This document shows positions 7,905 to 33,836 of a DNA stretch of 42,781 nt, in pieces. The stretch spans positions 1 to 42,781 of the forward strand of contig NZ_JANLCK010000019.1 of NCBI RefSeq assembly GCF_024979315.1. The letters are read 5' to 3'. The stretch's first letter is position 1. Each line of letters starts with the position of its first letter. Source of the stretch: Herbiconiux oxytropis (GTDB lineage: Bacteria; Actinomycetota; Actinomycetes; Actinomycetales; Microbacteriaceae). The translations under genes were made by a program, and so were the position numbers. Below the pieces are notes generated by a model. It was given only the letters and a program-made list of their open reading frames with translations, made no database searches and had not been told where the DNA came from.

Positions 7905-7948
7905 GGCGCTACCTTTCCTTGCTGTTGAGTGGGTGGTGCTGGTGGGCT

Positions 7949-7986
7949 ACTGGGTCGATGGATCACTGGGTCGATGGATCACTGGG
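7949..7986. repeat. 16-bp tandem repeat over the permease stop codon
   Basis: Two full copies of ACTGGGTCGATGGATC (7949-7964, 7965-7980) and the first six bases of a third (7981-7986) lie between the permease and lipoprotein genes. The permease stop (TCA, 7979-7981) falls at the junction of the second and third units, so the repeat duplicates the stop-codon region. Confidence 0.85.
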
Positions 7987-10717: not shown

Positions 10718-10723
10718 GACGGC

Positions 10724-11752
10724 CTAGTACTCGACCTTGTGCATGTACAGGCGGGTGTCGAGGTCGTGCCCGGACGCCGCCTCGAAGTGATCGGCGAGCC
10801 GCATCACCACGGAGGCCATGGGGATGTGGCCGACGGCCCCGCGCTGCTCGGGTGCGATGCCCTCGAGCTGGAGCTCGTCGACGTCGATGACCTCGTAGGT
10901 GTCGTTGTAGCGGTCGAGGAAGGCGCGCACGCGGTCGACGTGGCCGCGCGTGCCGTCGGCGCCGGCGATGAGGATGAAGGGCTGGTCGTTCTGCGCCATC
11001 TCGAACGGGCCGTGGAAGAAGTCGGCGGCGGTGAAGTAGGTCGACTTCTTCCACTGCATCTCGACCAGGTAGCAGACCGAGAGCATGTAGGCGAGGCCCA
11101 CCATGGGGCCGGCGCCGAGCACGTAGAGGTTGTCGCTCGGGCTGTAGGCCGCGGCGATCGACGAGAGCTTGGAGTCGTAGGCCTCGAGGGCGGCGAGGGT
11201 GGCCTCGGGGATGGCATCGAGCGCAGCGCGGGCGCCCGCGATGTCGGCCCCGGCGCCGAAGGCTTCTAGCAGGGAATAGGAGAGCTCGGTGAGCAGCACG
11301 TACTTGGCGCTCGTGATGGTGCGGTCGCTGCCGTAGACGAGGTGGAAGGCGGCGGCGCGGCCGAGCGCGTTGTCGGCATCACGGGCGAGCGAGACCACGA
11401 AGGCGCCCCGGGCGGCGGCGGCCTCGGCGGCCGCGACGGTCTCGGGGGTGCCGCCGGAGTGGGAGGCCGCGACCACGAGCGTCTTCTCGTCGATCGAGGG
11501 CAGGTAGAGGGAGGTGAGCTCGGTGGCGTTGATGTTCTCGGAGGAGAACGGGGTGGGGAGCGACCCGAGCAGCACGTTGGCCGGAACTCCGGAGGCCCAG
11601 GAGCCCCCGACGCCCGTGAAGACCACGCGGGTGATGCCGCGGCGGACGGCCTCGGCAGCGATCTCCTGGGTGAGACCGCGCTGGGAGGTGGCGCCGCGCA
11701 GCACGGCGACGAGATCGGATTCGATGGGCCGGAGGGCCAGGGATGACGACAT
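10724..11752 (-). CDS. SIS-domain protein, FrlB-like sugar-phosphate deglycase/isomerase
   Basis: 342 residues with two SIS domains. The phosphosugar-binding loops are FTGVGGSWASG (about residues 41-51) and AASHSGGTPETV (about 90-101), with the second half around YVLGAGPMVG and ADFFHGPFEM. That pattern (SxSGxTxE, then FFHGPFE) is shared with fructoselysine-6-phosphate deglycase FrlB and the isomerase half of GlmS; there is no glutaminase domain, which argues against GlmS. The start at 11752 is preceded by GAGGAA; longer in-frame starts reach into the operator region and are rejected. This is the first gene of the nine-gene operon. The probable reaction is cleavage of a 6-phosphorylated Amadori product into glucose-6-phosphate and a free amine. 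Confidence 0.85.
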   Translation of the reverse strand: MSSSLALRPIESDLVAVLRGATSQRGLTQEIAAEAVRRGITRVVFTGVGGSWASGVPANVLLGSLPTPFSSENINATELTSLYLPSIDEKTLVVAASHSGGTPETVAAAEAAAARGAFVVSLARDADNALGRAAAFHLVYGSDRTITSAKYVLLTELSYSLLEAFGAGADIAGARAALDAIPEATLAALEAYDSKLSSIAAAYSPSDNLYVLGAGPMVGLAYMLSVCYLVEMQWKKSTYFTAADFFHGPFEMAQNDQPFILIAGADGTRGHVDRVRAFLDRYNDTYEVIDVDELQLEGIAPEQRGAVGHIPMASVVMRLADHFEAASGHDLDTRLYMHKVEY

Positions 11753-11807
11753 GAGAGCAGTTCCTCGAGTGTGTGCGACGGTGCGGACATTCCGTGGGCG
11801 GTTCATG

Positions 11808-13262: not shown

Positions 13263-14828
13263 TTAAGGCGCGGCCGGCCCGCCTGCCAGCCCTGCCGCGC
13301 GGAGGGCGAGCCAGAGCTCGGCCGCCACGTCGGCGTCGTCGAGGTCGAGGTCGAGGCGCTCGGAGACCGCGGCGATGCGGTTGCGCACCGAGTTGCGGTG
13401 CACGCCGAGCTCGCGGGCCGCGCGCTCCCAGTGGCCGCGGTGGCGGAGGTAGCTCACCACGGTGGGCAGCGCCTCGCCCGCGGGGTCGTCCACGAGCTGC
13501 TCCCGCCAGCGCGCAGCACGGGAGGTGCCCGACGGGTCGTCCTCCCACGCCAGCCGACCGGGCGCAACCGACCCGGCGAGTCGCAGCATCCGCTCGAGCG
13601 CGTGCGGCACCTGCTCGAGCGCCTGGGGCGACCCGAGCACGGCGGAGGCGACGAGGTCGCGTGCGTGGTTGACGTCGGCGCGGGTCGGCGCGGGGGCATC
13701 GATGCCGCCGCGCGGCAGGTCCGCCGGCACGAGCGCCACCGCCGTGCCGCGAAGGCGCAGCCACCACGGAGTGCGGGCGAGCACCGCCGCCAGCTGCTGC
13801 ACCCCCTCGCCCTCGAGGCCCGCCATCGTCGCGGCGAGCGCCGAGCGGGAGGCGAGGGCGGCAGCAGGCGCCCGCACCACGCAGAGCCGCACCTCGTCGG
13901 CCGGGGCGCCGAGCCCCTCCTGGCGCGTGACCGCCCGCGCCGCGTCGGTGCGGCCGGCCAGTACGAGACCTGTGACGACCGCGCCCACCCGGTCGTCCGC
14001 GTCCCGACGCCGCTCGCGCGCTCCCTCGCACACCCCGAGCAGAGCGGCAGCGGTGAGCAGCACGTGCCGATCGGGCCGCGGCTCGTCGTCGGCCGCCCCC
14101 ACCGCGAGGAACCCCGCCGAGCGGCGGCCGTCCATCACCGCGTGCCCGATCACCACGTCGCCGTCCTGCGGGAAGGTCGCGCCCGTGTGCGGGCCGAGCG
14201 ACCGCAGCCGGCCGAGGCCAGCCACGATCCCGGCGAGCTCCGCGGTCGCCGCGGCCGGGCGCACCAGGGCGACCTCGCCATCGAACGAGACGTACGCCGC
14301 CCACCCGCCCACCCCTCGCGCGAGCCGGTCGAGCAGCAGACCGGGGTCGTCGTCGGCCGCCGCCTGCGCGAGCGCCGTCTGCACCCGCAGCCGCGACGAC
14401 AGGTCGGCGAGCTCGAGCCGGCTCACCACCTCCCAGTAGCCACGTGAGATGCGCTGGAACGGCACGCCCGGCGGCACCACGAACAGAGGCAGTCCGGCCG
14501 CCCTGCAGGCCTCGGCGAGGCCCGGGTCGACGGCGTCGGTGCCCGCGCCGAGCCCCAGACCGAGGGCCACGACGCCCCGGCCGACCAGCCGGTCGACGTA
14601 GGGTCGCGGGTCGGCGGCACCTGCGAGCGGGATGCCCGTGGTGAGCAGCAGCTCGCCGCCCTCGAGATACGGGGTCGGGTCGTCGAGCTCGGAGACGTGC
14701 ACGCCGCGCACGAGGGGCCGGCCGATCCGACCGGGCTCTGCGAGGCGCAGCTCTGTGGAGAACAGGTGCATGAGCTCCTCGAGGGTGATCCCCCGCGGGC
14801 CGGTCTCGGAGCGGTCGACGGTCGTCAT
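13263..14828 (-). CDS. PucR-family transcriptional regulator
   Basis: 521 residues from the ATG at 14828. The N-terminal third holds the PucR/purine-catabolism-like sensor region (ITLEELMHLF, then GGELLLTTGIPLAG and FVVPPGVPFQRISRGYWE). The C-terminus has the PucR helix-turn-helix: VVSYLRHRGHWERAARELG followed by VHRNSVRNRIAAVSERLDLD. Such proteins activate nitrogen-compound catabolic genes. This one is divergent from the aminotransferase - aldehyde dehydrogenase - acyl-CoA dehydrogenase operon, with only 80 bases between start codons, and is the obvious candidate activator. Longer in-frame starts run into that intergenic region and lack typical PucR sequence. The inducer is probably the amine or omega-amino acid degraded by the operon (inference). 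Confidence 0.88.
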   Translation of the reverse strand: MTTVDRSETGPRGITLEELMHLFSTELRLAEPGRIGRPLVRGVHVSELDDPTPYLEGGELLLTTGIPLAGAADPRPYVDRLVGRGVVALGLGLGAGTDAVDPGLAEACRAAGLPLFVVPPGVPFQRISRGYWEVVSRLELADLSSRLRVQTALAQAAADDDPGLLLDRLARGVGGWAAYVSFDGEVALVRPAAATAELAGIVAGLGRLRSLGPHTGATFPQDGDVVIGHAVMDGRRSAGFLAVGAADDEPRPDRHVLLTAAALLGVCEGARERRRDADDRVGAVVTGLVLAGRTDAARAVTRQEGLGAPADEVRLCVVRAPAAALASRSALAATMAGLEGEGVQQLAAVLARTPWWLRLRGTAVALVPADLPRGGIDAPAPTRADVNHARDLVASAVLGSPQALEQVPHALERMLRLAGSVAPGRLAWEDDPSGTSRAARWREQLVDDPAGEALPTVVSYLRHRGHWERAARELGVHRNSVRNRIAAVSERLDLDLDDADVAAELWLALRAAGLAGGPAAP

Positions 14829-14896
14829 GGATGAATCATCCACCGACCACGGCATTTCAGGCGAATTGCACAGCCGCGTTGCCGGCTGCTCGCGCT

Positions 14897-14902
14897 TATG
14901 GT
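14897..14902 (+). promoter_or_regulatory. -10-like TATGGT for the aminotransferase operon
   Basis: TATGGT ends six bases before the ATG at 14909, so transcription would begin at or near the start codon (leaderless mRNA). No strong -35 box is seen, which would fit activator (PucR)-dependent transcription. Confidence 0.4.
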
Positions 14903-14908
14903 TTCGGC

Positions 14909-16291
14909 ATGTCCTCCGCATCCGAGACCCTCACCGCACCGCGCCTGCCGCAGACCCGACTGCTTCGCACCGAGCTCCCCGGCCCCGTGTCGCAGCGCCT
15001 GCACGCCGAGCGTCGCCGGCACGTCTCGAGCGGTTTCGGCATCGCGCTGCCGGTGTTCGTGGAGCGCGCAGACGGAGCCGTGATCGAGGACGTCGATGGC
15101 AACCGCATCCTCGATCTCGCCTCGGGCATCGCCGTGACGAGCGTGGGCGCGGCCAACCCGCTCGTGCAGCACGAGGTCGCCGCCCAGCTCGAGCGCTTCA
15201 CCCACACGTGCTTCATGGTCACCGAGTACGACGGCTTCGTGAAGGTGTGCCGCTGGCTCAACGAGAACACCCCCGGCGACTTCGACAAGCGCACCGCGCT
15301 GTTCTCGACCGGCGCCGAGGCGGTGGAGAACGCCGTGAAGATCGCGCGAGCGGCCACCGGGCGCCCCAACGTGCTCGTGTTCGACGAGGCGTACCACGGC
15401 CGGTCGCTCCTCACGATGGCGATGACCGCCAAGCCGGCGCCCTACAAGAACGGCTTCGGACCCTTCCCCGAGCACGTCGTGCGCGCGCCCAACGCCGTCG
15501 CCCTGCGCTGGCCCGGCGATCCGGAGCGGGTGGCCGAGGAGGCGCTCGCGGAGGTCGAACGGCTGCTCGCCGAGCACGGGCCCGACACCTTCGCCGCCCT
15601 CGTGATCGAGCCCATCCAGGGCGAGGGCGGATTCCTCGTACCGGCACCCCGGTTCCTCGCCGGACTCCGCGAGCTCGCCACGCGGCACGGCATCGTCTTC
15701 GTCGCCGACGAGATCCAGGCGGGTATGGGCCGCACCGGACGGATGTTCGCGATCGAGCACGAGGGCGTCGTGCCCGACCTCGTCATCAGCGCCAAGGCGC
15801 TGGCCGGTGGGCTCCCGCTGAGCGCGGTCACCGGCCGGGCCGAGATCATGGATGCGCCCGCGGTGGGCGGGCTCGGCGGCACCTATGCCGGCAACCCGCT
15901 CGCGTGCGCCGCGGCCCTCGGGGTCTTCCAGGCCTTCGAGGCGAGCGACCTGCTTGGCCGTGCCCTCGCCATCGAGCAGACGGTGAGGGCGGCGCTCGAA
16001 CCGCACACCGGGCCGGCGTCGGTGGTGGCGGAGGTGCGCGGACGGGGCGCGATGATGGCCGTGGAGTTCGCCCAGCCGTGGACCCTCGAGCCGCTGCCCC
16101 AGCTCGCTCAGGCCGTGGCGGCCGACTGCCTCGCCCAGGGCGTGCTCGTGCTCGTCTGCGGCACCCACGGCAACGTGGTGCGACTGCTTCCTCCCCTCGT
16201 GATCGAGGATGCGCTGCTCGACGACGGCCTCGCGGTGCTCACCGCCGCCATCGCCGAGGCGCAGCAGCGGTTCCTGGGGGCGCACGCGTGA
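14909..16291 (+). CDS. gabT: Class III omega-aminotransferase (GABA/5-aminovalerate type)
   Basis: 460 residues. It has the class III aminotransferase motifs ALFSTGAEAVENAVKIARAATG, FDEAYHGRSLLTM, VIEPIQGEGGF and FVADEIQAGMGRTGRMFA; the PLP-binding Lys296 is in SAKALAGGLPLSA. The pattern is that of GabT/DavT, which move an omega-amino group from 4-aminobutyrate or 5-aminovalerate to 2-oxoglutarate. The ATG at 14909 is preferred over the in-frame ATG at 14831 because the family N-terminus begins here and a -10-like box lies just upstream. With the aldehyde dehydrogenase and glutaryl-CoA dehydrogenase genes downstream, 5-aminovalerate (giving glutarate semialdehyde) is a better guess than GABA, but both are usual substrates. 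Confidence 0.9.
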   Translation: MSSASETLTAPRLPQTRLLRTELPGPVSQRLHAERRRHVSSGFGIALPVFVERADGAVIEDVDGNRILDLASGIAVTSVGAANPLVQHEVAAQLERFTHTCFMVTEYDGFVKVCRWLNENTPGDFDKRTALFSTGAEAVENAVKIARAATGRPNVLVFDEAYHGRSLLTMAMTAKPAPYKNGFGPFPEHVVRAPNAVALRWPGDPERVAEEALAEVERLLAEHGPDTFAALVIEPIQGEGGFLVPAPRFLAGLRELATRHGIVFVADEIQAGMGRTGRMFAIEHEGVVPDLVISAKALAGGLPLSAVTGRAEIMDAPAVGGLGGTYAGNPLACAAALGVFQAFEASDLLGRALAIEQTVRAALEPHTGPASVVAEVRGRGAMMAVEFAQPWTLEPLPQLAQAVAADCLAQGVLVLVCGTHGNVVRLLPPLVIEDALLDDGLAVLTAAIAEAQQRFLGAHA

Positions 16292-24691: not shown

Positions 24692-25521
24692 CCGGACAGG
24701 ATCTGGACCCGCAGCTGTCCACCTCGATGCGCCGGACGATCGTGCAGCATGCCCGTACGAGCACCCGGAGGTCGCGGTCTCCGCGTCAATGGGCGACGAT
24801 CCTGGGGAGCATCGCGCTGCTCACGGGTGTCGCAGCGATGGCCGCAGCGATCATCGTCACGGGCCTGCCGAACTCCGTTCCGACTCCGCCCATCGCGAAC
24901 ACCTCTGCACCGACCGCGTCTTCGTCTCCTCCACCACCGACGCCGACCCCATCTCCGACACCGACCAGCACTCCGACACCGTCGGCAGCGCCGGCGCCTC
25001 AGGTGGACAACACCGACCCGAGCACCTGGATCGTGGGCTTCGACGGAGTCGGTCCTGTTCAGCTCGGCTCCCCACTGGAGGACCAGCGGCAGCTGCTTCC
25101 GGTCTTCGAGGACATCACAGACCCGCTGTGCGTGGCGGGATACCTCGACCTCCGCGCGCCGAGTGGATTCGCACTCCGCTTCGTGAGCGGACCCGATCAA
25201 CCCGTCACCGCGGCCATCACCTTCGGAAACGGCGGATCAAGGAGTGCGGATGATCGGGCGACCACCCCGACTACCGCCGAGGGCATCGGCATCGGTTCGA
25301 CCAAGGATGAACTACTCACGGCGTATCCGGATATCGAGCTGACCGGGACCTACCAGAGTGACGACTACCCCTACTACGGGATAACGGATGGTACGGGCGG
25401 TTGGATCATCTTCGCGCTGATCGACGACGAGGTGAGCAGGATCCAGATCGCTCACGAGGACGTCCTGCCCATCGAGAACGTGAGTGTGAAGACCATGCCC
25501 TCGGAACGCTGCCCCGCCTGA
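24688..25521 (+). CDS. Single-pass membrane protein, probable partner of the ECF sigma factor
   Basis: 277 residues. A short basic cytoplasmic part (residues 1-35, MRRTIVQHARTSTRRSRSP) precedes one membrane helix (about 36-60, ILGSIALLTGVAAMAAAII). Next comes a Pro/Thr/Ser-rich linker (about 65-105, PTPTPSPTPTSTPTPS) and an extracellular domain of about 165 residues with aromatic, Gly-rich strands. The layout and the 4-bp overlap with the sigma gene are those of an anti-sigma or signal-sensing partner, but no zinc anti-sigma HxxxCxxC motif is present in the short cytoplasmic part. The mechanism is therefore open. The extracellular domain has GIGIGSTKDELLTAYPD, a segment seen in secreted bacterial domains of unknown role. 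Confidence 0.75.
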   Translation: MTGQDLDPQLSTSMRRTIVQHARTSTRRSRSPRQWATILGSIALLTGVAAMAAAIIVTGLPNSVPTPPIANTSAPTASSSPPPPTPTPSPTPTSTPTPSAAPAPQVDNTDPSTWIVGFDGVGPVQLGSPLEDQRQLLPVFEDITDPLCVAGYLDLRAPSGFALRFVSGPDQPVTAAITFGNGGSRSADDRATTPTTAEGIGIGSTKDELLTAYPDIELTGTYQSDDYPYYGITDGTGGWIIFALIDDEVSRIQIAHEDVLPIENVSVKTMPSERCPA

Positions 25522-25597
25522 CCCAGTCGCGCTCCCCCGCACCGCCCGACCGGAGCGCCGCATGGCCACCTGGCGGAAGCTGCCGCTCAGGCCACCC

Positions 25598-25807
25598 GCG
25601 ACTTGACAGTAACTGCGCCCATCCGCGCACAACTTCTGTCAAGTGGACGACCTCCCGAGAGCGCGTCAGCCCCAGAACGTAAGCAGGCCGTGGGGTGTGC
25701 ATGATCCGTTCGAGTCATCGGCATCGGGCCTGGCGGGAGACCGCGAAGCGGGCGAGGGGACTATGACTCGAACGGATCATGCACACCCCACGGACCCCAC
25801 GAGCAAC
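25598..25807. repeat. Dispersed palindromic repeat, copy A
   Basis: This fills about half of the 409-base gap 25522-25930, which holds no gene. The core is a perfect 31-bp inverted repeat, 25688-25718 with 25763-25793 (arms start CCGTGGGGTGTGCATGATCC), around a 44-base loop with a CCGC-gaa-GCGG mini-stem. The core is preceded by the GACTTGACAGTA module shared with copies B and C, which itself has a partly paired partner at 25623-25642. The core matches copy B (42491-42596) at 105 of 106 positions. Confidence 0.85.
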
Positions 25808-25848
25808 TCCGTCGAATGTGTCGCGCACGTAAAACCCGCGCCCACCTC

Positions 25849-25909
25849 TTGACAGACATCATCCGGAGACATCATTGTTATGTCCGATGACAACACCAGT
25901 CATCAGACA
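25849..25909 (+). promoter_or_regulatory. Promoter and GntR-type operator region of the second SIS operon
   Basis: A consensus -35 TTGACA (25849-25854) is followed by ATCATCCGGAGAC (25858-25870). Next is an inverted repeat TGTCCGATGAC-N7-GTCATCAGACA (25881-25891, 25899-25909; 10 of 11 pairs). ATCATCCG-NN-GAC recurs upstream of the GntR/UTRA gene at 32329-32341, which supports these as binding sites of that regulator. The exact -10 box is uncertain. Confidence 0.55.
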
Positions 25910-25930
25910 ACTGCAATCAGAAGGCTCCTA

Positions 25931-26944
25931 ATGCTCAATTTCGACGAAGCCCGCTTCACCAGAATCCAGTCCGGCGCGGTGGCGCTGTCGGGCCCGCTCG
26001 ACGACCTCGTCGGCACGCTGCTCGATCAGGGCGCGAAGAACGTCTTCTTCCTCGGCGCCGGCGGCGCCGGTGTGCTCATGCAGCCCGCCGTCCAGCTCAT
26101 CTCCCGCCACTCCGACTTCCCGGCCCACCTCGATAACGCCGCCGAGCTCATGGCCGTGGGTTCGACGAACCTCGGCGAAGGCTCCATCGTGGTCGTGCCC
26201 TCGCTCTCGGGCACCACGAAGGAGGCCGTGCAGGTGGTCGAGTACGCCCGCGGAAAGGGTGCCGTCACCATCACGCTCACCGGCTACGCCGACAGCCCCG
26301 TGGCCAAGGCCGCCGACCACAACTTCACCAACTTTGCCGCCGACGACACCTCCTCGGAATCGTTCTACCTGCAGTCGCTCGAGTTCGCGCTCTCGATCGT
26401 GCGTCGCCGAGGCGAGCTGCCCGACTACGACACCGTGATCGCCGAGCTGGCACTGCTGCCCACCCTGCTGATCGAGGCGAAGCGGTCGTTCGAGGAGCGG
26501 GCCGAGGCCCTGGCGGTCGCCACGAAGGACGTCGGCTACCACATCTTCACGGGGGCGGGCGAGGCCTGGACCGAGGCCTGGTACTTCGCCACCTGCATCC
26601 TCGAGGAGATGCAGTGGGTGCGCACCCGACCCGTGCACGCCTCCGACTTCTTCCATGGAACCCTGGAGCTCGTGGAGCAGGGCGTGAGCGTGGTGCTGCT
26701 GAAGGGCGAGGATGCCACGCGTGCGCTCGCCGACCGCGTCGAGGCCTTCGTGCCCTCGATCACCGAGGAGCTCACGGTGATCGACTCCGCCTCCTTCGAC
26801 CTGCCAGGCATCAGCCCCCGGGTGCGCGCACTGATCTCGCACATCGTGCTCGCCACGGTGCTCGAGCGCTACAGCGCCCACCTCGAAGTCGTGCGCGACC
26901 ACCCGCTCACCACCCGCCGGTACTACCGCCGCCTCGACTACTGA
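25931..26944 (+). CDS. SIS-domain protein, FrlB-like sugar-phosphate deglycase/isomerase
   Basis: 337 residues from the ATG at 25931, chosen because AGAAGG lies six bases upstream; an ATG at 25880 would fall inside the operator. Two SIS domains: VFFLGAGGAGVLM (about residues 36-48) and VPSLSGTTKEAVQVVEYARG (about 90-109), then IFTGAGEAWTEAWYFATCIL and ASDFFHGTLELVEQG. This is the FrlB/fructosamine-6-phosphate deglycase layout without a glutaminase domain. It is the first gene of an operon with a ribose-type transporter and a PfkB-M20 fusion. It is only distantly similar to the SIS protein at 10724 (shared motif positions, differing elsewhere), so the two modules are probably not a recent duplication. 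Confidence 0.85.
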   Translation: MLNFDEARFTRIQSGAVALSGPLDDLVGTLLDQGAKNVFFLGAGGAGVLMQPAVQLISRHSDFPAHLDNAAELMAVGSTNLGEGSIVVVPSLSGTTKEAVQVVEYARGKGAVTITLTGYADSPVAKAADHNFTNFAADDTSSESFYLQSLEFALSIVRRRGELPDYDTVIAELALLPTLLIEAKRSFEERAEALAVATKDVGYHIFTGAGEAWTEAWYFATCILEEMQWVRTRPVHASDFFHGTLELVEQGVSVVLLKGEDATRALADRVEAFVPSITEELTVIDSASFDLPGISPRVRALISHIVLATVLERYSAHLEVVRDHPLTTRRYYRRLDY

Positions 26945-26951
26945 ACCCCTC

Positions 26952-26983
26952 CGGGGGCGGAGGTGCCGCGACCTCCGCCCCCG
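26952..26983 (+). terminator. Strong intra-operon hairpin after the SIS gene
   Basis: A 13-bp perfect stem (26952-26964 with 26971-26983, CGGGGGCGGAGGT and complement) with a 6-base loop, eight bases past the SIS stop codon. No U-tract. It may partly stop transcription or protect the 3' end of the processed upstream transcript before the lipoprotein gene. Confidence 0.6.
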
Positions 26984-27097
26984 CCCGGCCAGCTCCACCG
27001 CGCGGCACCCGCACCGAACCGAAAGCACCACCTGCACGTCACCATCCACCGATCGAATCCCATCGCGCGGCTCCCGCCGCCGGGTTAGGACACCCAC

Positions 27098-28207
27098 ATG
27101 ATCACGACACTCAGCACCCCAGCGGCCAAGCGCCTGCGCCTGGCCACCGCCGCCACGGCCGGACTCGCGCTCTTCGCCCTCGCCGGCTGCTCGTCGAGCG
27201 GCGACGACGCCCCCTCGACGTCGGCCTCCGGAGACGACGTCGCGGTGACGCTCATCATCAAGACCCAGGGCACCTCGTACTTCCAGGAGATGGCCGACGG
27301 CGCCACCGCCGCAGCCGACGAGCTCGGCGTCGACCTCACCGTGGCCGCCGGCAAGGTCGATGGCGACGAGGACACCCAGATCCAGGCGATCGAGAACGCC
27401 ATCTCCCGCGGCGACCAGGGCATCCTGATCACACCCAACGGCCCCACCGTGTTCGACGCCATCCAGAAGGCACGCGAGGCCGGCCTCTACGTGATCGCCC
27501 TCGACACCGTCCCGGATCCGGTCGACTCGGTCGACATCACCTTCGCCACCGACAACTTCCTCGCCGGTCAGCTGGTGGGCCAGTGGACGGCCGAGAAGCT
27601 CGACGGCGGCGACGCCGTGATCGCGCTCCTGGACCTCTTCGACGACAAGGTGCTCACCGTCGACTACGACCGCGACCAGGGCTTCCTCGACGGCCTGGGC
27701 ATCGACCTCGGCGATCCCGCCGTGAACGGCGACGAGGCTCCCACCGGCACCTACACCGGCGGGAAGGGCGGCGAGTACACGATCGTCGGCAACCTCGCCA
27801 CCCAGGGCACCGAGGAGGGCGGCCGCACCGCCACCGAGACCCTGCTCAGCGAGAACCCCGACATCAACGTGATCTACGGCATCAACGAGCCGGCCTCCTA
27901 CGGCGGCTACCAGGCGATGGAGGCCGCGGGCAAGACCGAAGGCCTCATCACGGTGTCGATCGACGGCTCGTGCGACGGAGCCCAGTACGTCGAGGACGGG
28001 ATCCTGCAGGCGACAGCGCAGCAGTACCCTCTGAAGATGGCCGAGCTCGGCGTGCAGGCGATCTACGACCTCGTCACCACCGGCACCGCTCCCGCTCCCG
28101 AAGACGGGGAGGACTTCTTCAACACCGGCGTGCAGCTGATCACGAACGAGCCGATGCCCGATGTGCCGAGCATCGACGTCGCCGAAGGCCAGGAGGTCTG
28201 CTTCTGA
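27098..28207 (+). CDS. Ribose-type ABC transporter substrate-binding lipoprotein
   Basis: 369 residues. Signal peptide with lipobox LAGC and lipidated Cys31, then a Ser/Asp-rich linker. The type 1 periplasmic-binding fold is seen at VTLIIKTQGTSYFQEMADG, GDQGILITPNGPTVFDAIQ, VIALDTVPDPVDSVDITFA and NVIYGINEPASYGGYQAM. It is somewhat longer than the homologue at 6918. Strong hairpins lie both before and after this gene, a pattern that usually sets a higher transcript level for the binding protein than for the other components. It should deliver the sugar derivative handled by the SIS and fusion enzymes. Confidence 0.9.
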   Translation: MITTLSTPAAKRLRLATAATAGLALFALAGCSSSGDDAPSTSASGDDVAVTLIIKTQGTSYFQEMADGATAAADELGVDLTVAAGKVDGDEDTQIQAIENAISRGDQGILITPNGPTVFDAIQKAREAGLYVIALDTVPDPVDSVDITFATDNFLAGQLVGQWTAEKLDGGDAVIALLDLFDDKVLTVDYDRDQGFLDGLGIDLGDPAVNGDEAPTGTYTGGKGGEYTIVGNLATQGTEEGGRTATETLLSENPDINVIYGINEPASYGGYQAMEAAGKTEGLITVSIDGSCDGAQYVEDGILQATAQQYPLKMAELGVQAIYDLVTTGTAPAPEDGEDFFNTGVQLITNEPMPDVPSIDVAEGQEVCF

Positions 28208-28241
28208 GCACGATGCGGCCCGCCCCGCGCGGAACGCACCA

Positions 28242-28269
28242 GGGGCGGCTCGGCCGGTCGAGCCGCCCC
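28242..28269 (+). terminator. Strong intra-operon hairpin after the lipoprotein gene
   Basis: GGGGCGGCTCG (28242-28252) pairs perfectly with CGAGCCGCCCC (28259-28269) around a 6-base loop. No U-tract follows. Probably an attenuating or RNA-stabilising stem between lipoprotein and permease genes. Confidence 0.6.
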
Positions 28270-28298
28270 CACCTTCCCTCTCGACCAGGAGTAGCACT

Positions 28299-29333
28299 GT
28301 GACCGACACCGCACCGAAGACGGGTTCTCTCGACCTGGCTGAGGAGTTCCTCGACCGAACGACGCCCCTCACCCGCATCCGGGGCATCCTGCACCGGCAC
28401 CCCGCCATCAGCCCCGCCCTCGTGCTGCTCGTGGCGGTGATCGTCTTCGGCCTGCTGAACGACCGGTTCCTGCGCCCGGAGAACCTCTCGTTGATCTCGC
28501 AGCAGGTGGCCGTGGTGGGCACGCTGGCCATCGCCCAGACGCTCGTCATCCTCACCGCCGGCATCGACCTGTCGGTGGGTGCGATCATGATCCTCTCGGC
28601 CATGGTGATGGCCCAGACCGCCGCGAGCACCGGAGTGCCACCCGTGCTCTGCCTGCTGCTCGGGCTCGTGGTCGGCCTCGCAGCCGGCGGCCTGAACGGC
28701 CTGCTCGTCACGCGCCTGAAGCTGCCGCCGTTCATCGTGACTCTCGGCACGCTGAGCATCTTCACCGCGGTGACGCTGCTCTACACGGGCGGCACCACCG
28801 TGCGCGGCTCCGAGATCCCGCCGCTGCTGACCTTCACGGGGGTCACCTTCAGCATCGGAGGCATCAGCCTCACCGCGGGCGTGCTGATCATGGTGCTCCT
28901 CTACCTGATCATGGCCTACGCGCTCAACCGCACCGCGTGGGGCCGCCACGTCTACGCCGTCGGCGACGACAAGGAGGCCGCGCGGCTGGCGGGCATCAGC
29001 GTCAACCGCGTGCTCGTGTCGGTGTACCTCGCGGCCGGCGCCATCATCGCCGTCGCCGCCTGGATCCAGATCGGCCGGACCAACGCGGCCAGCCCGAACT
29101 CCGGGGTCGACCTCAACCTCGACTCCATCACGGCCGTGGTGATCGGCGGCACGAGCCTCTTCGGCGGGCGGGGCGCCGTGTGGGGCACTCTGCTCGGGGC
29201 GCTCATCGTCGGCGTCTTCCGCAACGGGCTCGCTCTCGCGGGGCTCGACGTGCTCTACCAGACGCTCGCGGTGGGCGTGCTCATCATCGTCGCCGTCGCT
29301 CTCGACCAGTGGATCAGGAAGGCCCGCTCATGA
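28299..29333 (+). CDS. Ribose-type (CUT2) ABC transporter permease
   Basis: 344 residues from a GTG at 28299 behind CCAGGAG. About nine to ten membrane segments with the family marks AGIDLSVGAIMILSAMVMAQ, LNGLLVTRLKLPPFIVTLGT and VVIGGTSLFGGRGAVWGTLLG. An N-terminal cytoplasmic stretch of about 40 residues precedes the first membrane segment. A single permease gene implies a homodimer. The stop overlaps the ATPase start as ATGA. Confidence 0.93.
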   Translation: MTDTAPKTGSLDLAEEFLDRTTPLTRIRGILHRHPAISPALVLLVAVIVFGLLNDRFLRPENLSLISQQVAVVGTLAIAQTLVILTAGIDLSVGAIMILSAMVMAQTAASTGVPPVLCLLLGLVVGLAAGGLNGLLVTRLKLPPFIVTLGTLSIFTAVTLLYTGGTTVRGSEIPPLLTFTGVTFSIGGISLTAGVLIMVLLYLIMAYALNRTAWGRHVYAVGDDKEAARLAGISVNRVLVSVYLAAGAIIAVAAWIQIGRTNAASPNSGVDLNLDSITAVVIGGTSLFGGRGAVWGTLLGALIVGVFRNGLALAGLDVLYQTLAVGVLIIVAVALDQWIRKARS

Positions 29334-30145
29334 CCGCACCCGCATCCCGATCCGCGTCCGCATCCGCATCCGCCCACGACGTCGACACCCGCGCCCCGAT
29401 CCTCGAGGCGCGCCGCCTGGTCAAGACCTACGGCCGCGTCGTGGGGCTCGACGGGGTCGGCCTGAAGCTCTACCCCGGCGAGGTGCTCGCCATCATCGGC
29501 GACAACGGCGCCGGCAAGTCGACCCTCGTCAAGTGCCTCACCGGCGCCGAGGTCCCCGACACCGGCGAGCTGCTGCTCGACGGCCGGCCCGTCAGCTTCA
29601 AGCGGCCGCAGGATGCCAGAGCGGCCGGCATCGAGACCGTCTACCAGACCCTCGCCGTGTCGCCCGCGCTCGACGTGGCCTCGAACCTCTTCCTCGGCCG
29701 CGAGGAGCGCAAGCGCGGCATCCTGGGCTCGGTGTTCCGGATGCTCGACACCAAGGGCATGCGGGCGAAGGCGGGCCGGGAGCTCGCCGAGCTCGGCATC
29801 TCGACGCTGCAGGATGTCACGGTGCCGGTGGAGAACCTCTCGGGCGGTCAGCGCCAGGCGGTCGCCGTGGCCCGCGCCGCGGCCTTCGGCTCGAAGGTGG
29901 TGGTGCTCGACGAGCCCACCGCCGCCCTCGGCGTGCGCGAGTCGAACCAGGTGCTGGAGCTCGTGAAGGCCCTGCGCGAGCGCGGCATCCCGGTGATCAT
30001 CATCAGCCACAACATGCCGCAGGTGTTCGAGGTGGCCGACCGCATCCACATCCAGCGGCTCGGCAAGCGCGCGGCCACGATCACGCCGCAGTCGCACTCG
30101 ATGACCGAGGCCGTCGCCATCATGACAGGAGCCCAGACCGCATGA
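29330..30145 (+). CDS. ABC transporter ATP-binding protein (single-domain, sugar type)
   Basis: 271 residues, one nucleotide-binding domain: Walker A GDNGAGKS, TVYQTLAVSP around the Q-loop, signature LSGGQRQ, Walker B VVLDEPTAAL and SHN switch. It is half the length of RbsA and should act as a homodimer, as in the first operon. The N-terminus carries a short Ser/Ala repeat (SRSASASASA) encoded by TCCGCA-type repeats. Its stop overlaps the start of the kinase-M20 fusion as ATGA. Confidence 0.93.
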   Translation: MTAPASRSASASASAHDVDTRAPILEARRLVKTYGRVVGLDGVGLKLYPGEVLAIIGDNGAGKSTLVKCLTGAEVPDTGELLLDGRPVSFKRPQDARAAGIETVYQTLAVSPALDVASNLFLGREERKRGILGSVFRMLDTKGMRAKAGRELAELGISTLQDVTVPVENLSGGQRQAVAVARAAAFGSKVVVLDEPTAALGVRESNQVLELVKALRERGIPVIIISHNMPQVFEVADRIHIQRLGKRAATITPQSHSMTEAVAIMTGAQTA

Positions 30146-32316
30146 GCACCCTTGAACCCCTGCAGTCCCTCTGGGTCGCCGTCGTCGGCGACAACACCGT
30201 CGATCGCTACCTCGGCGACGAGGCCGTGGAGTACTCCGGCGGCAACGCCTTCAACGTGGCCGTGCAGCTCGCCCGCGCCGGAGTGCCGGTGCGCTACTTC
30301 GGCGCGGTCGCGGCGGATGCGGACGCGCGCATCATCGAGCGCGGCCTCGTGCAGAACGGCATCGCTCTCGACGGACTCGAGGTGCTGCCGGGCGAGACGG
30401 CCGTCACGATCATCCGGGTGACCGAGGACGGCGACCGGGTGTTCGAGCGGGAGGACTTCGGCGTGACGGCCGACTACCACCCCTCGGCCGACACCGTGCA
30501 GACGCTCGCCGGGGCGGCGTGGGTGCACATCGGGATGCTGCCCGGCGCCGGCACGCTGCGGGCCGAGCTCGCTGCGGGAGCGCACGGCGTGATCAGCCAG
30601 GACTGCGCCGTGGCGGCGGGCCTCGCCGATCTCGACGTCGCCTTCCTCTCGGCCGGGGAGGGCGCCGACGCCGAGGCGATCGCAGCCGAGACCCTGGCCG
30701 CAGGCGTGCCGCTCGCGGTGGTGACTCGGGGTGCCGACGGCGCGTTCGCGAGCGACGGATCGTCGCACTGGAGCCAGGAGGCCGCGCCCGCTGAGGTGGT
30801 CGACACCACGGGTGCCGGCGACAGCTTCATCGCCGGATTCATCGCCGCACGGGTGACCGGCGGAGACGTTCCGGCCGCGCTCGAGAACGGCGCCCGGTTC
30901 GCGGCCGTGACGGTGACGCATCAGGCCGGCTGGCCGCATCCGGAGCCTGCTGAGTCAGAAGCCGCCAAGACAGCCGCGGCCGGGGTCTCCGGAGACCGGG
31001 ACGAGCTGCTTGCGCGGATCGACGCGGCGATCGAGGAGTTCGCCGACGAGGCGACGGCGCTCCTGGTCGACCTCGTAGCCGTGCGAAGCGTGAATCCGCT
31101 GCAGCCCGGGGTCGACGGCTCGCTCTATGCGGGCGGCGAGAAGCGCGCCAACGAGGTGCTGGCCGAGGCGTTCCGGCCGCTGGGCTTCACGATCGACTGG
31201 GTCGAGGCGGCGGAGGGCCGGCCGAACCTCGTCGCCGTGCTGCCCGGCACGGGCGGCGGCCGCTCTCTCGCTCTCAACGGGCACATCGACACGGTGGCTC
31301 CTCAGGCGGGCCGGTTCGACGATCCGTGGACCGCCGTGATCGAGGACGGCTGGCTCTACGGACTGGGCGCCACCGACATGAAGGCCGGTCACGCCGCCAT
31401 GTGGCTGGCGGCCCGGGCGCTGGAGCGTTCGGGCGTGCGTCTGGCAGGAGCGCTGCACATCCACTCGGTGGTCGGCGAGGAGACGATGAGTCACGAGATC
31501 GGCACCACGGCGATCCTCGAAGCCGGCTACGTCGTCGACGGGGCGATCATCCCGGAGCCGACCTCCACGGCACCGGATCTGCTGCGGGTGGCCAACGCCG
31601 CCGCGGGCAACTACCTGTTCTCCGTGGCCGTCCGCGGCCGCTCCACGCACTGGGCGTCGCGCAATCTCGCGATCCGCGCGGGAGGGCCCGGCGACGAGAT
31701 CGGGGTGAACGCGATCGACAAGATCGTGCAGGTCTACTCGGCCATGCGCCAGCTCGAGGAGCAGTGGGCGTTCACGAAGACGCATCCGAGCTTCCCCGCC
31801 GGGGCGTTCATCATCCACCCCGGGGTGATGAGGGCCGACATCGGCGTCGAGGCGGCACCGTACTTCCCGGATCGCGCCCGCATCGACTACCTGCTCTCCT
31901 TCCCGCCGGGCGACACCTCCGAACAGATCGCGGCCGAGGTGGAGGAGCACATCGGCCACGCGGCGGCGATGGATCCGTGGCTGCGGGAGAACCCGGTGGA
32001 GTTCACCTGGACCGACACGTGGCCGCCCGCCTACACCGACCCCTCGTCGGAGTTCGCCCGCTCGGTCATGGCGTCACGCGGCAGTCTCGCCGAGGTCGAA
32101 CCCGCGGTGCCGCCGCTCGACGCGCCGGTGACCGCAGCGGCGCAGTCGGATGCCAATTTCTACGAGGCCTACGGCATCCCGGCGCTCGTGTGCGGGCCGG
32201 GCGATGTGCGGGTCGCGCACGCGGCCGACGAGCGGGTGGCCGTGGCGAACATCGCCCTCGCCGCACGCATGATGGCCCGAGTCGCGATCGACTGGTGCGG
32301 GGTGAAGGAGCGCTAG
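30142..32316 (+). CDS. Fusion protein: PfkB (FrlD-like) sugar kinase + M20 metallopeptidase/deacylase
   Basis: 724 residues in one uninterrupted frame. Residues 1-270 are a complete PfkB kinase: VVGDNTVDRYLGDEAVEYSG at the N-terminus, and DTTGAGDSFIAGF with catalytic Asp227. After a short Ala/Glu-rich linker (about 270-285), residues 287-724 form a full M20 enzyme (ArgE/DapE/dipeptidase type). Its metal ligands and catalytic residues are present: His381 and Asp383 (NGHIDTV), Asp412 (TDMKAG), Glu446-Glu447 (GEET), Glu472 (PEPT) and His693 (VAHAAD). M20 enzymes hydrolyse N-acyl amino acids or dipeptides. Fusion to a fructosamine-type kinase suggests both act on the same imported molecule, for example a glycated dipeptide or N-acylated Amadori compound. 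The operon has no other kinase. No ribosome binding site is seen at the junction, so separate translation of the M20 part is unlikely. Confidence 0.9.
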   Translation: MSTLEPLQSLWVAVVGDNTVDRYLGDEAVEYSGGNAFNVAVQLARAGVPVRYFGAVAADADARIIERGLVQNGIALDGLEVLPGETAVTIIRVTEDGDRVFEREDFGVTADYHPSADTVQTLAGAAWVHIGMLPGAGTLRAELAAGAHGVISQDCAVAAGLADLDVAFLSAGEGADAEAIAAETLAAGVPLAVVTRGADGAFASDGSSHWSQEAAPAEVVDTTGAGDSFIAGFIAARVTGGDVPAALENGARFAAVTVTHQAGWPHPEPAESEAAKTAAAGVSGDRDELLARIDAAIEEFADEATALLVDLVAVRSVNPLQPGVDGSLYAGGEKRANEVLAEAFRPLGFTIDWVEAAEGRPNLVAVLPGTGGGRSLALNGHIDTVAPQAGRFDDPWTAVIEDGWLYGLGATDMKAGHAAMWLAARALERSGVRLAGALHIHSVVGEETMSHEIGTTAILEAGYVVDGAIIPEPTSTAPDLLRVANAAAGNYLFSVAVRGRSTHWASRNLAIRAGGPGDEIGVNAIDKIVQVYSAMRQLEEQWAFTKTHPSFPAGAFIIHPGVMRADIGVEAAPYFPDRARIDYLLSFPPGDTSEQIAAEVEEHIGHAAAMDPWLRENPVEFTWTDTWPPAYTDPSSEFARSVMASRGSLAEVEPAVPPLDAPVTAAAQSDANFYEAYGIPALVCGPGDVRVAHAADERVAVANIALAARMMARVAIDWCGVKER

Positions 32317-32328
32317 ACGAATCCGCGG

Positions 32329-32364
32329 ATCATCCGACGACTACCAGGTGGCCTTGAATACACT
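32329..32364 (+). promoter_or_regulatory. Operator-like site and -10 box of the GntR gene
   Basis: ATCATCCGACGAC (32329-32341) matches the site at 25858-25870 at 11 of 13 positions. It overlaps the place of a -35 box for TACACT (32359-32364). This suggests autoregulation by the GntR protein. Confidence 0.5.
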
Positions 32365-32402
32365 GAGGCCGAGCGCGCTTCGGAGCGCAGAGGAGGACAG
32401 CC

Positions 32403-33146
32403 GTGAAAGCTGGGAAGTCACCGTCCACCAAGAAGGCGCCCCTGGCGCACGGGCTGAAGGAGGACATCCTCGAGCTGATCGCCGCCGAGGGCATGCGACC
32501 GGGCGACCAGCTGCCGACCGAGCCCGAGCTCGCCGAACGGTTCTCGGCGTCGCGGTCGACGGTGCGCGAGGCGCTCAAGCTGCTCGAGCAGGACGGGCTC
32601 GTGAACGCCATCCAGGGCCGGGGCCGCTTCCTCTCCGCCCTCGGCTCGATGAGCATCGAGCGGCCGGTGACGATCTACGAGAGCATCACCGAGATGCTCG
32701 AGGGGCTCGGCTTCACGGTGACCAATGCGGTGCTCAGCGTCACGGAGGACACGGCCGACGAGCACGTCGCCCACGAGCTGGGCCTCGAACCGGGCGACCC
32801 GGTCATCCGGCTGGTGCGGCTGCGGCTCGGCAACGACCAGCCGATGGTGTTCAGCATCAACATCATCCGGCGCGACGCCCTGCCGGGCCCGATCGCCTAC
32901 CGTGACTGGGGCGTCTCGGTGACGAGCGCCCTCGAGGGCCACGGGCACAGCATCGACTCGTCGATCGCGCGGATCAGCGCGGCCGACCTGCCGGCAGACT
33001 ACGCCCGCAAGCACGACCTGAAGAAGTACGACCCGTGGCTCCTCGTGGAGGAGACCTGCATCACCCGCGACGGCCAGCGCGTGCTGTACGCGCTCGACTT
33101 CCACCGCAGCAGCGAGATCGCCTTCAACGTGATCCGCCGCCGCTGA
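32403..33146 (+). CDS. GntR-family regulator, HutC/UTRA subfamily (FrlR-like)
   Basis: 247 residues from a GTG at 32403 with a strong GAGGAGGA ribosome binding site. Winged helix at residues about 10-75 (LKEDILELIAAEGMRPGDQL, PTEPELAERFSASRSTVREA). The UTRA effector domain follows, with LGLEPGDPVIRLVRLRLGND, WGVSVTSALEG and a closing LYALDFHRSSEIAFNVIRR. Fructosamine operons of E. coli (FrlR) and Salmonella (FraR) are controlled by this same subfamily, usually sensing a phosphorylated sugar. Its location right after the second SIS operon and shared operator-like sequence make it the likely regulator of that operon. Confidence 0.92.
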   Translation: MKAGKSPSTKKAPLAHGLKEDILELIAAEGMRPGDQLPTEPELAERFSASRSTVREALKLLEQDGLVNAIQGRGRFLSALGSMSIERPVTIYESITEMLEGLGFTVTNAVLSVTEDTADEHVAHELGLEPGDPVIRLVRLRLGNDQPMVFSINIIRRDALPGPIAYRDWGVSVTSALEGHGHSIDSSIARISAADLPADYARKHDLKKYDPWLLVEETCITRDGQRVLYALDFHRSSEIAFNVIRRR

Positions 33147-33284
33147 CCTCGGGGATCCATGCTCACCCGAATCTCGTCCACGCCGAAGAACTCCAGCTGG
33201 GGCTCGGCCACGGCGCCCCCCGGCTCCTCGGCACGAACTCGAGAACTCCGCGATCGTCGTCGGTGTCGGCGGCGGCCTCCCGTG

Positions 33285-33836
33285 CTATCTGATCTCGGAG
33301 ATGAGCACCGCTGTGGTTCCTTCGACCTGAGACTCGAAGAGATGGGGGGCATCGCCCGGGTACGAGAGGTAGTCGCCGGGCAAGAGGGCGAGCGGAGCTG
33401 AAGCCGGTCCGACGAGTGCGGCACCCGACGCCAGGATGACGTGCTCCACGGTTCCACGGGCATGGGGGCCGGAGATCTTCGGAGTGCCGGGATCGGCCTG
33501 CACGAGGTAGACGTCGCGACGTGCGTGGGGCGGACTGGCCGAGAGGAGTGCAGCTCCATAGCTGCTCGTGGCCGACCGGATGCGCGGGGCGTCGGCTGCA
33601 CGGATCAGCGTGACGGATTCGGGCGACTCGTCCACGAGCCGGGCGAACGGAACTGCGAGCGCGTCCCCGAGGCCCCACAGCGTCTCCACGTTCGGGTTGC
33701 CTCCGCCCGACTCGAGCTGCGAGATCGTCGCCTTGGAGACGCCCGAGAGGCGGGCCAGTTCGGACACGGAAAGGCCGGCCGCCGTGCGCTCCCTGCGAAG
33801 CGCCGCTCCGATCCGAGCGCCGAGATCGACCATCAT
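33285..33836 (-). CDS. XRE-family regulator with C-terminal cupin
   Basis: 183 residues. N-terminal Cro/C1 helix-turn-helix (GARIGAALRRERTAAGLSVS, then LARLSGVSKATISQLESGGG). A cupin sensor follows from about residue 105: KISGPHARGTVEHVILASGA and LPGDYLSYPGDAPHLFE, with metal-binding His and Glu. Such proteins control amino-acid or amine transport and catabolism. It is divergent from the AzlCD genes, with an inverted repeat at its own start codon, so it probably represses both. The 138 bases between its stop and the GntR stop hold no clear gene; a short minus-strand frame there (VAEPQLEFFGVDEIRVSMD) might be the remnant of one. Confidence 0.9.
   Translation of the reverse strand: MMVDLGARIGAALRRERTAAGLSVSELARLSGVSKATISQLESGGGNPNVETLWGLGDALAVPFARLVDESPESVTLIRAADAPRIRSATSSYGAALLSASPPHARRDVYLVQADPGTPKISGPHARGTVEHVILASGAALVGPASAPLALLPGDYLSYPGDAPHLFESQVEGTTAVLISEIR

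What the first reader, a model, noticed from the sequence alone, without database searches (positions are those of the whole stretch)
30142..32316. PfkB fructosamine-type kinase fused in frame to an M20 metallopeptidase/deacylase
Seen: one 724-residue frame with a complete PfkB kinase (GAGD, Asp227) and a complete M20 enzyme (His381, Asp383, Asp412, Glu446/447, Glu472, His693). Known: Amadori operons pair an SIS deglycase with a PfkB kinase (FrlB/FrlD), and Salmonella fra adds a separate asparaginase that trims the substrate. I know of no described kinase-M20 fusion. Inference: the two activities act in sequence on one imported compound, for example a glycated dipeptide or N-acyl fructosamine, which would be a new branch of Amadori catabolism. 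A 14-bp palindrome, GGTCTCCGGAGACC (30984-30997), lies in the linker.
Basis: partly seen in the sequence, partly recalled or inferred. Interest (0 to 1): 0.85.

Follow-up and report, generated by a model that had tools for sequence, protein, structure and literature searches.

The report
Sugar-kinase/amidohydrolase fusion in fructosamine operon
In two Herbiconiux bacteria, two neighbouring enzymes of a probable operon for breaking down glycated amino acids (browning products), a sugar kinase and an amide-cutting metalloenzyme, have recently merged into one protein; the fusion is rare, but the pairing of these enzymes is older and points to an uncharacterised kind of glycated nutrient.

Summary
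30142-32316 is one open frame of 724 aa: a PfkB kinase resembling fructoselysine 6-kinase, then an ArgE/DapE-type M20 enzyme, with the catalytic residues named all present. It is not an assembly error: Herbiconiux solani has the same fusion (82% identity), and a seven-protein tree puts both in one clade (99/98). Two other Herbiconiux, a Micromonospora and a Paractinoplanes have the same operon with two genes overlapping by 4 bp (ATGA/GTGA), so the fusion is one recent collapse of a stop/start overlap. No other fusion was seen in the searches made.

The older pattern is more interesting. All 11 genomes found with an M20 at least 64% identical also encode an FrlB-like SIS deglycase and an FrlD-like kinase, with CUT2 importer genes in the M20 cluster. 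SIS or KIN is nearby in 2 of 10 loci with M20 at 39-45%, and in 0 of 63 with more distant M20. In Conexibacter and Rubellimicrobium the cluster also holds a hydantoinase pair; the window has such a pair in a second SIS-PfkB-CUT2 operon (3-12 kb).

Best reading: M20 unmasks an imported amide-blocked fructosamine, then kinase and deglycase act. Substrate and order are untested. The palindrome is chance. New variant of a known kind.

The parts
25880..26944 (+). SIS-domain deglycase-like protein (FrlB/FraB/Gfr type), first gene of the operon
   Evidence: PF01380 57.8 bits; NCBIfam fructoselysine 6-phosphate deglycase 87.8 bits, below cut-off 430; best solved structures 2a3n 217.7, 3eua 151.3, 9ou6 122.6 bits; E243 (EMQW) and H259 (FFHG) lie in the same motifs there
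27098..28207 (+). CUT2-type substrate-binding protein
   Evidence: PF13407 133.9 bits
28299..29333 (+). CUT2-type permease; start taken as GTG 28299 (the longest listed ORF starts at 28161 and would overlap the binding-protein gene)
   Evidence: PF02653 138.4 bits; ribose and allose permease models best; sequence
29330..30145 (+). ABC ATPase of the importer; ATGA overlaps at both ends (29330-29333 with the permease stop, 30142-30145 with the kinase start)
   Evidence: PF00005 107.1 bits; sequence
30142..32316 (+). kinase-M20 fusion, 724 aa
   Evidence: AF2 model mean pLDDT 89.0, pTM 0.63
30142..30906 (+). PfkB kinase domain (about residues 1-255), FrlD-like
   Evidence: NF007321 fructoselysine 6-kinase 130 bits over 12-264, below cut-off 247
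30907..30987 (+). flexible linker, residues 256-282, pLDDT under 50; site of the fusion
30994..32313 (+). M20 ArgE/DapE-type amidohydrolase domain (about residues 285-724)
   Evidence: TIGR01910 192 bits, below cut-off 217.6; Foldseek top hit 3pfo, TMt 0.80
32403..33146 (+). GntR/UTRA transcription regulator, conserved last gene of the syntenic operons
   Evidence: PF07702 89.8 and PF00392 63.9 bits; 83-85% identical in the three syntenic Herbiconiux loci

Best explanation
The operon at 25.9-33.1 kb takes up and breaks down a glycated (Amadori/Heyns-type) amine whose amino-acid part is blocked by an amide bond. Steps: a CUT2 ABC importer brings it in; the M20 domain hydrolyses the amide and frees a fructosyl-amino acid; the PfkB domain phosphorylates the sugar at C6; the SIS enzyme splits the product into hexose 6-phosphate and the free amino acid; the GntR/UTRA protein regulates. 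Kinase and M20 were translationally coupled neighbours, and in one Herbiconiux lineage the 4-bp stop/start overlap was lost, making one bifunctional chain with a flexible linker. Shown: the fusion, its single origin on the tree, conserved catalytic residues in kinase, M20 and SIS, and the conserved gene set. Inferred: the substrate class, the chemistry of each step, and that M20 acts first.
For: Both domains are full length with their catalytic residues. Kinase and SIS score best against fructoselysine 6-kinase and fructoselysine-6-phosphate deglycase among NCBIfam models. The same operon with separate genes is in G005, G014, Micromonospora and Paractinoplanes, each with a 4-bp overlap; window + H. 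solani clade 99/98. M20 at least 64% identical: 11 genomes, 11 of 11 with SIS and KIN homologues and 11 of 11 with CUT2 genes in the M20 cluster; SIS or KIN in 0 of 63 loci with the most distant M20s. M20 lies directly next to the importer ATPase gene in 5 of 8 divergent clusters (L044, L047, L134, L053, L123), which fits action on the freshly imported compound. Known parallel: Salmonella fra adds an asparaginase to kinase and deglycase (PMC4072780, passages). Between the two fusions dN/dS is 0.105 for M20 and 0.32 for the kinase, i.e. purifying selection.
Against: No substrate evidence of any kind. NCBIfam scores are below every curated cut-off shown for the fusion and SIS, so specificity is not assigned. 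The closest SIS structure is 2a3n, not 3eua, the putative fructose-amino-acid-6-phosphate deglycase; 2a3n is from memory a Salmonella Gfr deglycase. Of 10 loci with M20 at 39-45% (L048-L057) only 2 hold SIS or KIN, so the M20 type tells little outside the close clade; 31 of the 63 distant loci are shorter than 15 kb, which weakens that control. In G188 SIS is 20 kb and KIN 26 kb from M20. A mannose-6-phosphate isomerase-like gene lies near SIS/KIN in 10 of 27 loci profiled, though not in the window, which a plain glucose-6-phosphate product would not need. The fra asparaginase was reported as periplasmic, whereas an M20 fused to a kinase should be cytoplasmic.
Confidence: 0.5

Rival explanations
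1. M20 acts last: kinase and SIS work on a glycated peptide or N-acyl amino acid, and M20 then cleaves the released dipeptide or N-acyl amino acid.
For: ArgE/DapE-type enzymes accept unglycated N-acyl amino acids, and M20 relatives cleave dipeptides (family knowledge; Foldseek hits include DapE, ArgE and carnosinase). Nothing in the anatomy fixes the order.
Against: M20 is directly beside the importer ATPase gene in 5 of 8 divergent clusters and in none of the 8 is SIS its nearest profiled neighbour; S. meliloti keeps M20 + CUT2 + FAD oxidoreductase far from SIS/KIN.
Confidence: 0.25
2. The substrate is not a glucose Amadori compound but another amino-sugar conjugate, such as a Heyns product or one bearing a lactam or hydantoin ring, with mannose-6-phosphate or fructose-6-phosphate as product.
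For: SIS is nearer to 2a3n (217.7 bits) than to 3eua (151.3); isomerase-like genes near SIS/KIN in 10 of 27 loci profiled, two of which (L022, L043) were scanned and pass the manA cut-off; caprolactamase-like HyuA/HyuB in the window's second operon and hydantoinase genes in Conexibacter and Rubellimicrobium.
Against: The kinase still scores best against fructoselysine 6-kinase; no isomerase gene was found in the window, and the one match in its genome at E 1e-10 lies on another contig; none near the H. solani fusion either.
Confidence: 0.2
3. The fusion is a neutral accident: the two domains work exactly as the separate enzymes do, with no channelling. (Compatible with the best explanation.)
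For: Linker differs in length and sequence between the two fusions, is of low confidence in the model, and relatives show the genes already coupled by a 4-bp overlap.
Against: Kept open in both descendants since their split; the window's M20 has no start of its own.
Confidence: 0.6
4. Assembly or sequencing error joined two genes.
For: Relatives with separate genes differ at the joint by a frame change.
Against: Uninterrupted fusion in a second species; the overlap start codon of M20 is gone in both, which a single miscalled base would not explain.
Confidence: 0.01

Closest known systems
frl operon (FrlB/FrlD; E. coli, B. subtilis)
   Same: SIS deglycase with PfkB kinase; ABC importer in B. 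subtilis (PMC12632257, search listing and start of abstract only); GntR-type regulator FrlR is recalled
   Different: CUT2 importer, extra M20 and fusion here; NCBIfam scores below the equivalog cut-offs for both FrlB and FrlD
Salmonella fra locus (FraB, FraD, FraE)
   Same: kinase + phosphosugar isomerase/deglycase + GntR regulator plus a hydrolase (asparaginase FraE) thought to trim the glycated amino acid (PMC4072780, passages)
   Different: dicarboxylate-type transporter and a reportedly periplasmic asparaginase there; CUT2 and a kinase-fused M20 here
Salmonella gfr (GfrE/GfrF deglycases)
   Same: deglycases for 6-phospho fructose-lysine and glucose-lysine (PMC12675984, passages; its text and its figure legend disagree on which is which); 2a3n, from memory a Gfr deglycase, is the nearest solved SIS
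   Different: sugar phosphorylated by a PTS there, by a PfkB kinase here
soc genes for santhopine (fructosyl-glutamine) in Rhizobiaceae, Microbacteriaceae, Micrococcaceae
   Same: Amadori catabolism in the same bacterial family (PMC8262997, passages)
   Different: soc gene make-up was not compared here; two rhizobial SIS/PfkB clusters (S. meliloti, Rhizobium sp. BG4) use amino-acid ABC transporters and an FAD oxidoreductase
ArgE/DapE-type M20 deacylases; 3pfo of R. palustris
   Same: fold, metal-site residues, best sequence and structure match
   Different: 3pfo is annotated only as putative; 26% identity; here fused to a kinase

Membership tests
PfkB sugar kinases | PF00294 domain above cut-off and GAGD with catalytic Asp | tested here: met
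   101.2 bits vs 25.8; GAGD 224-227 invariant in 11
FrlD fructoselysine 6-kinase | NCBIfam NF007321 equivalog cut-off | tested here: not met
   130 bits vs 247
FrlD fructoselysine 6-kinase | phosphorylates a fructosamine at C6 | not testable with these tools
   needs enzyme assay
M20 metallohydrolases | PF01546 above cut-off and His/Asp/Asp/Glu-Glu/Glu/His metal and catalytic residues | tested here: met
   99.0 bits vs 24.6; residues 381, 383, 412, 446, 447, 472, 693
M20 metallohydrolases | lid/dimerisation domain PF07687 | tested here: inconclusive
   20.8 bits vs 21; the region is modelled with block pLDDT above 75
ArgE/DapE deacylase subfamily TIGR01910 | curated cut-off | tested here: not met
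   192 bits vs 217.6; it resembles one in fold, but is not filed as a member
FrlB/FraB SIS deglycases | NF008481 equivalog cut-off | tested here: not met
   87.8 bits vs 430
FrlB/FraB SIS deglycases | catalytic Glu and His (FraB E214/H230, recalled) | tested here: met
   E243 and H259 align with the EMQW and FFHG motifs of 9ou6 and 3eua; that these motifs hold E214/H230 is recalled, and two papers looked at did not give the numbers
fra-type locus (kinase + deglycase + trimming hydrolase) | hydrolase acting on the glycated amino acid | not testable with these tools
   M20 conserved with SIS/KIN, substrate unknown
fra-type locus (kinase + deglycase + trimming hydrolase) | FraA transporter and FraE asparaginase | tested here: not met
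   CUT2 genes and M20 instead

The most novel reading that the evidence does not exclude
A separate branch of Amadori/Heyns catabolism, shared by Actinomycetota and at least some Alphaproteobacteria, feeds on amide- or lactam-masked glycated amino acids. An M20 amidohydrolase, or a caprolactamase-like HyuA/HyuB pair, unmasks the imported compound before an FrlD-like kinase and FrlB-like deglycase finish it; Herbiconiux has merged unmasking and phosphorylation in one bifunctional enzyme.
Probability: 0.35. Interest if true: 0.7.

Novelty: new variant of a known kind. Interest (0 to 1): 0.48.

Why it matters
Glycated amino acids are common in decaying plants, soil and food, yet only a few free forms (such as fructosyl-lysine, -asparagine and -glutamine) have known bacterial pathways. 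A conserved M20 partner suggests that blocked forms are also eaten and gives a defined enzyme with which to find which. The fusion hands experimenters one chain in which to test both steps, and is a clean natural example of a stop/start overlap turning into a gene fusion, with the before and after states in one genus.

Tried and rejected
Assembly error: rejected (second species, lost overlap start of M20). Palindrome as a signal: rejected, chance. RNA element, promoter or terminator: no Rfam match in 25500-33300; in 25400-33400 no promoter-like site (shuffles 0.2) and one terminator-like site (shuffles 1.5). Two independent fusions: the seven-protein tree joins the two fused species. Fusions elsewhere: none among the other matches. 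Limits: the family, class, order and phylum searches scored only the best two candidates per genome, their genome draws overlap and are samples, and one search kept the best 80 of 493 relatives. Plasmid relatives of M20: 744 records matched, of which I looked at four neighbourhoods; S. meliloti (45%) has CUT2 genes, while Streptomyces, Tsukamurella and Rhodococcus (37-39%) have amidohydrolases, a nitrilase or glycine-cleavage genes and no SIS/KIN annotated nearby, so the last three were dropped as guides to function. Literature: no paper on a PfkB-M20 fusion or on an M20 partner in fructosamine operons appeared in the listings; the library holds only open-licence papers and only the top rows were listed, so this is weak. 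Support for fructosyl-pyroglutamate as substrate was sought and not found; it stays a guess.
Full report
What is there. Window 30142-32316 (+) is a single frame of 724 codons. Its ATG overlaps the stop of the preceding ABC ATPase gene (ATGA, 30142-30145). Pfam finds PF00294 and PF01546. NCBIfam's best matches are fructoselysine 6-kinase for residues 12-264 (130 bits, cut-off 247) and ArgE/DapE deacylase models for 288-723 (NF005306 193.6 of 376; TIGR01910 192 of 217.6), so each half has a near family but passes no curated cut-off among the 25 of 63 matches shown. Among PDB sequences 63 matched and 60 were shown; each half has relatives, and the longest chain shown has 472 residues, so none covers both halves. 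The AlphaFold2 model from 24 sequences has mean pLDDT 89.0 and pTM 0.63; two confident domains are joined by a low-confidence stretch at 256-282. Foldseek's 50 listed matches, led by 3pfo (TMt 0.80, 26% identity), are all M20-type enzymes.

The neighbourhood. SIS (25880), CUT2 binding protein (27098), permease (28299), ATPase (29330), the fusion, and a GntR/UTRA regulator (32403) run in one direction. The SIS protein matches fructoselysine-6-phosphate deglycase below cut-off (87.8 of 430), keeps the EMQW glutamate (243) and FFHG histidine (259) seen in the aligned solved structures, and is nearest to 2a3n (217.7 bits), ahead of 3eua, deposited as a putative fructose-amino-acid-6-phosphate deglycase (151.3).

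How the fusion arose. Among 60 relatives searched, G015 has a full-length match at 82% with no stop, while G005 and G014 of the same genus have the same two genes apart, kinase 72/71% and M20 87/86%. Of 16 genomes of the genus held, 5 match at E 1e-40 or better: two fused (the window's own and G015), two separate, and G001 with a kinase alone. In G005, G014 and Paractinoplanes the kinase stop and M20 start overlap as ATGA, in Micromonospora as GTGA. The fused forms have lost that start, and their linkers differ: H. solani is 742 aa, with an Asp/Gly-rich stretch that holds one in-frame GTG. A tree of seven concatenated proteins from six genomes (Micromonospora's binding protein left out, its match being in two pieces) joins window and H. 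solani at 99/98. One event inside Herbiconiux is the simplest account. dN/dS between the two fusions is 0.105 for M20 and 0.320 for the kinase; the kinase is also the faster between window and G005 (0.361 against 0.105), less so between G005 and G014 (0.131 against 0.093).

How widely. Matches at E 1e-40 or better: 17 of 398 genomes of the family. At E 1e-60 or better: 7 of 394 of the class, 4 of 396 of the order, 2 of 396 of the phylum; the draws overlap and each includes the window's own genome. Only G000 and G015 matched both halves in one frame.

The pairing is older than the fusion. One scan of the 84,980-species genome collection with the M20 alignment found 493 relatives and kept 79 loci. 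M20 proteins at least 64% identical are known here from 11 genomes: window, H. solani, G005, G014, Micromonospora, Paractinoplanes, Naasia (G306), Ruicaihuangia (G188), Agrococcus baldri (G257), G278 and G473; the pairings of G306, G188 and G257 with names rest on matching contig positions or lengths. SIS lies within the first fetched neighbourhood in 9; in G278 and G188 it is about 11 and 20 kb from M20. A kinase homologue is present in all 11, in G473 at the start of another contig and in G188 26 kb away at only 36% identity. CUT2 genes are in the M20 cluster in 11 of 11. Of the 16 loci L042-L057, 7 hold SIS or KIN: 5 of 6 with M20 at least 64% identical, and 2 of 10 with 39-45%, namely Conexibacter (L050, SIS cut by the contig end) and the alphaproteobacterium Rubellimicrobium (L053). 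Of the 63 loci L058-L120 none does; 31 of those 63 are shorter than 15 kb and 9 shorter than 8 kb, so that control is imperfect. In S. meliloti Ak57 pSymB the 45% M20 sits with CUT2 genes and an FAD oxidoreductase, while GntR, SIS and PfkB sit far away on the same replicon with amino-acid transport genes and another FAD oxidoreductase.

Accessory genes as hints. SIS/KIN genes without M20 keep other helpers: FAD oxidoreductases, an asparaginase and an argininosuccinate-lyase-like gene in Agrobacterium, and mannose-6-phosphate-isomerase-like genes, which also occur beside M20 clusters: 10 of 27 SIS/KIN places profiled, not the window or H. solani; two of the ten were scanned and pass the manA cut-off. 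Conexibacter and Rubellimicrobium join M20 with HyuA/HyuB. The window carries a second operon on the minus strand, SIS2-KIN2-CUT2-HyuA-HyuB; its HyuA/HyuB are 59% and 54% identical to Conexibacter's, and their best NCBIfam models are the caprolactamase subunits, below cut-off (540.7 and 266.3 of 1000). M20 and a lactam-opening pair may therefore be alternative or successive ways into one kind of chemistry: opening an amide on the amino-acid side of a glycated compound. That is an inference.

Mechanism. I commit to: import by CUT2, amide cleavage by M20, phosphorylation by PfkB, deglycation by SIS. Cleavage is placed first because M20 lies directly beside the importer ATPase gene in 5 of 8 divergent clusters (L044, L047, L134, L053, L123; not in L050, L145, L135), and by analogy with the asparaginase of fra (PMC4072780, passages), which however was reported as periplasmic. 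The order, the substrate and any channelling are unproven. The flexible, unconserved linker argues against a rigid tunnel.

Standing. Fusion: real, rare, recent. Pathway: a variant of the fructosamine kinase/deglycase kind, with an uncharacterised amidohydrolase step. I found no paper describing it in the searches named in Tried and rejected, in an open-licence library only.

Noticed in passing
window 3071-11806 (- strand): Second SIS-PfkB-CUT2 operon: SIS2 10724-11806, PfkB 9890-10717, ABC ATPase from about 9016, permease 7979-9019, binding protein 6918-7904, HyuA 4852-6921, HyuB 3071-4855 (best NCBIfam models caprolactamase, below cut-off). SIS2 is about 30% identical to SIS1. A frame with a glyoxalase-like domain follows at 2044-2868.
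   Followed up: partly
L022, L023, L043, L044, L047, L128, L129, L130, L131, L157: A class I mannose-6-phosphate isomerase-like gene lies near SIS/KIN genes in these 10 of 27 loci profiled; perhaps the deglycase releases mannose 6-phosphate. In the window's genome the one match lies on another contig.
   Followed up: partly
L053 and L050: One cluster holds SIS, PfkB, CUT2, M20, HyuA/HyuB and an FAD oxidoreductase, in an alphaproteobacterium and in Conexibacter.
   Followed up: partly
L124 (Agrobacterium sp. 33MFTa1.1): SIS and PfkB beside an asparaginase, an argininosuccinate-lyase-like gene and an MmgE/PrpD gene: possibly another route for fructosyl-asparagine/aspartate.
   Followed up: no
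window 13266-14921 (-): Frame with a PucR-type regulator domain upstream of the second operon.
   Followed up: no
window 30142-30906 and L042: The kinase domain differs more than its operon partners between window and H. solani (74% identity against 85-94%).
   Followed up: no
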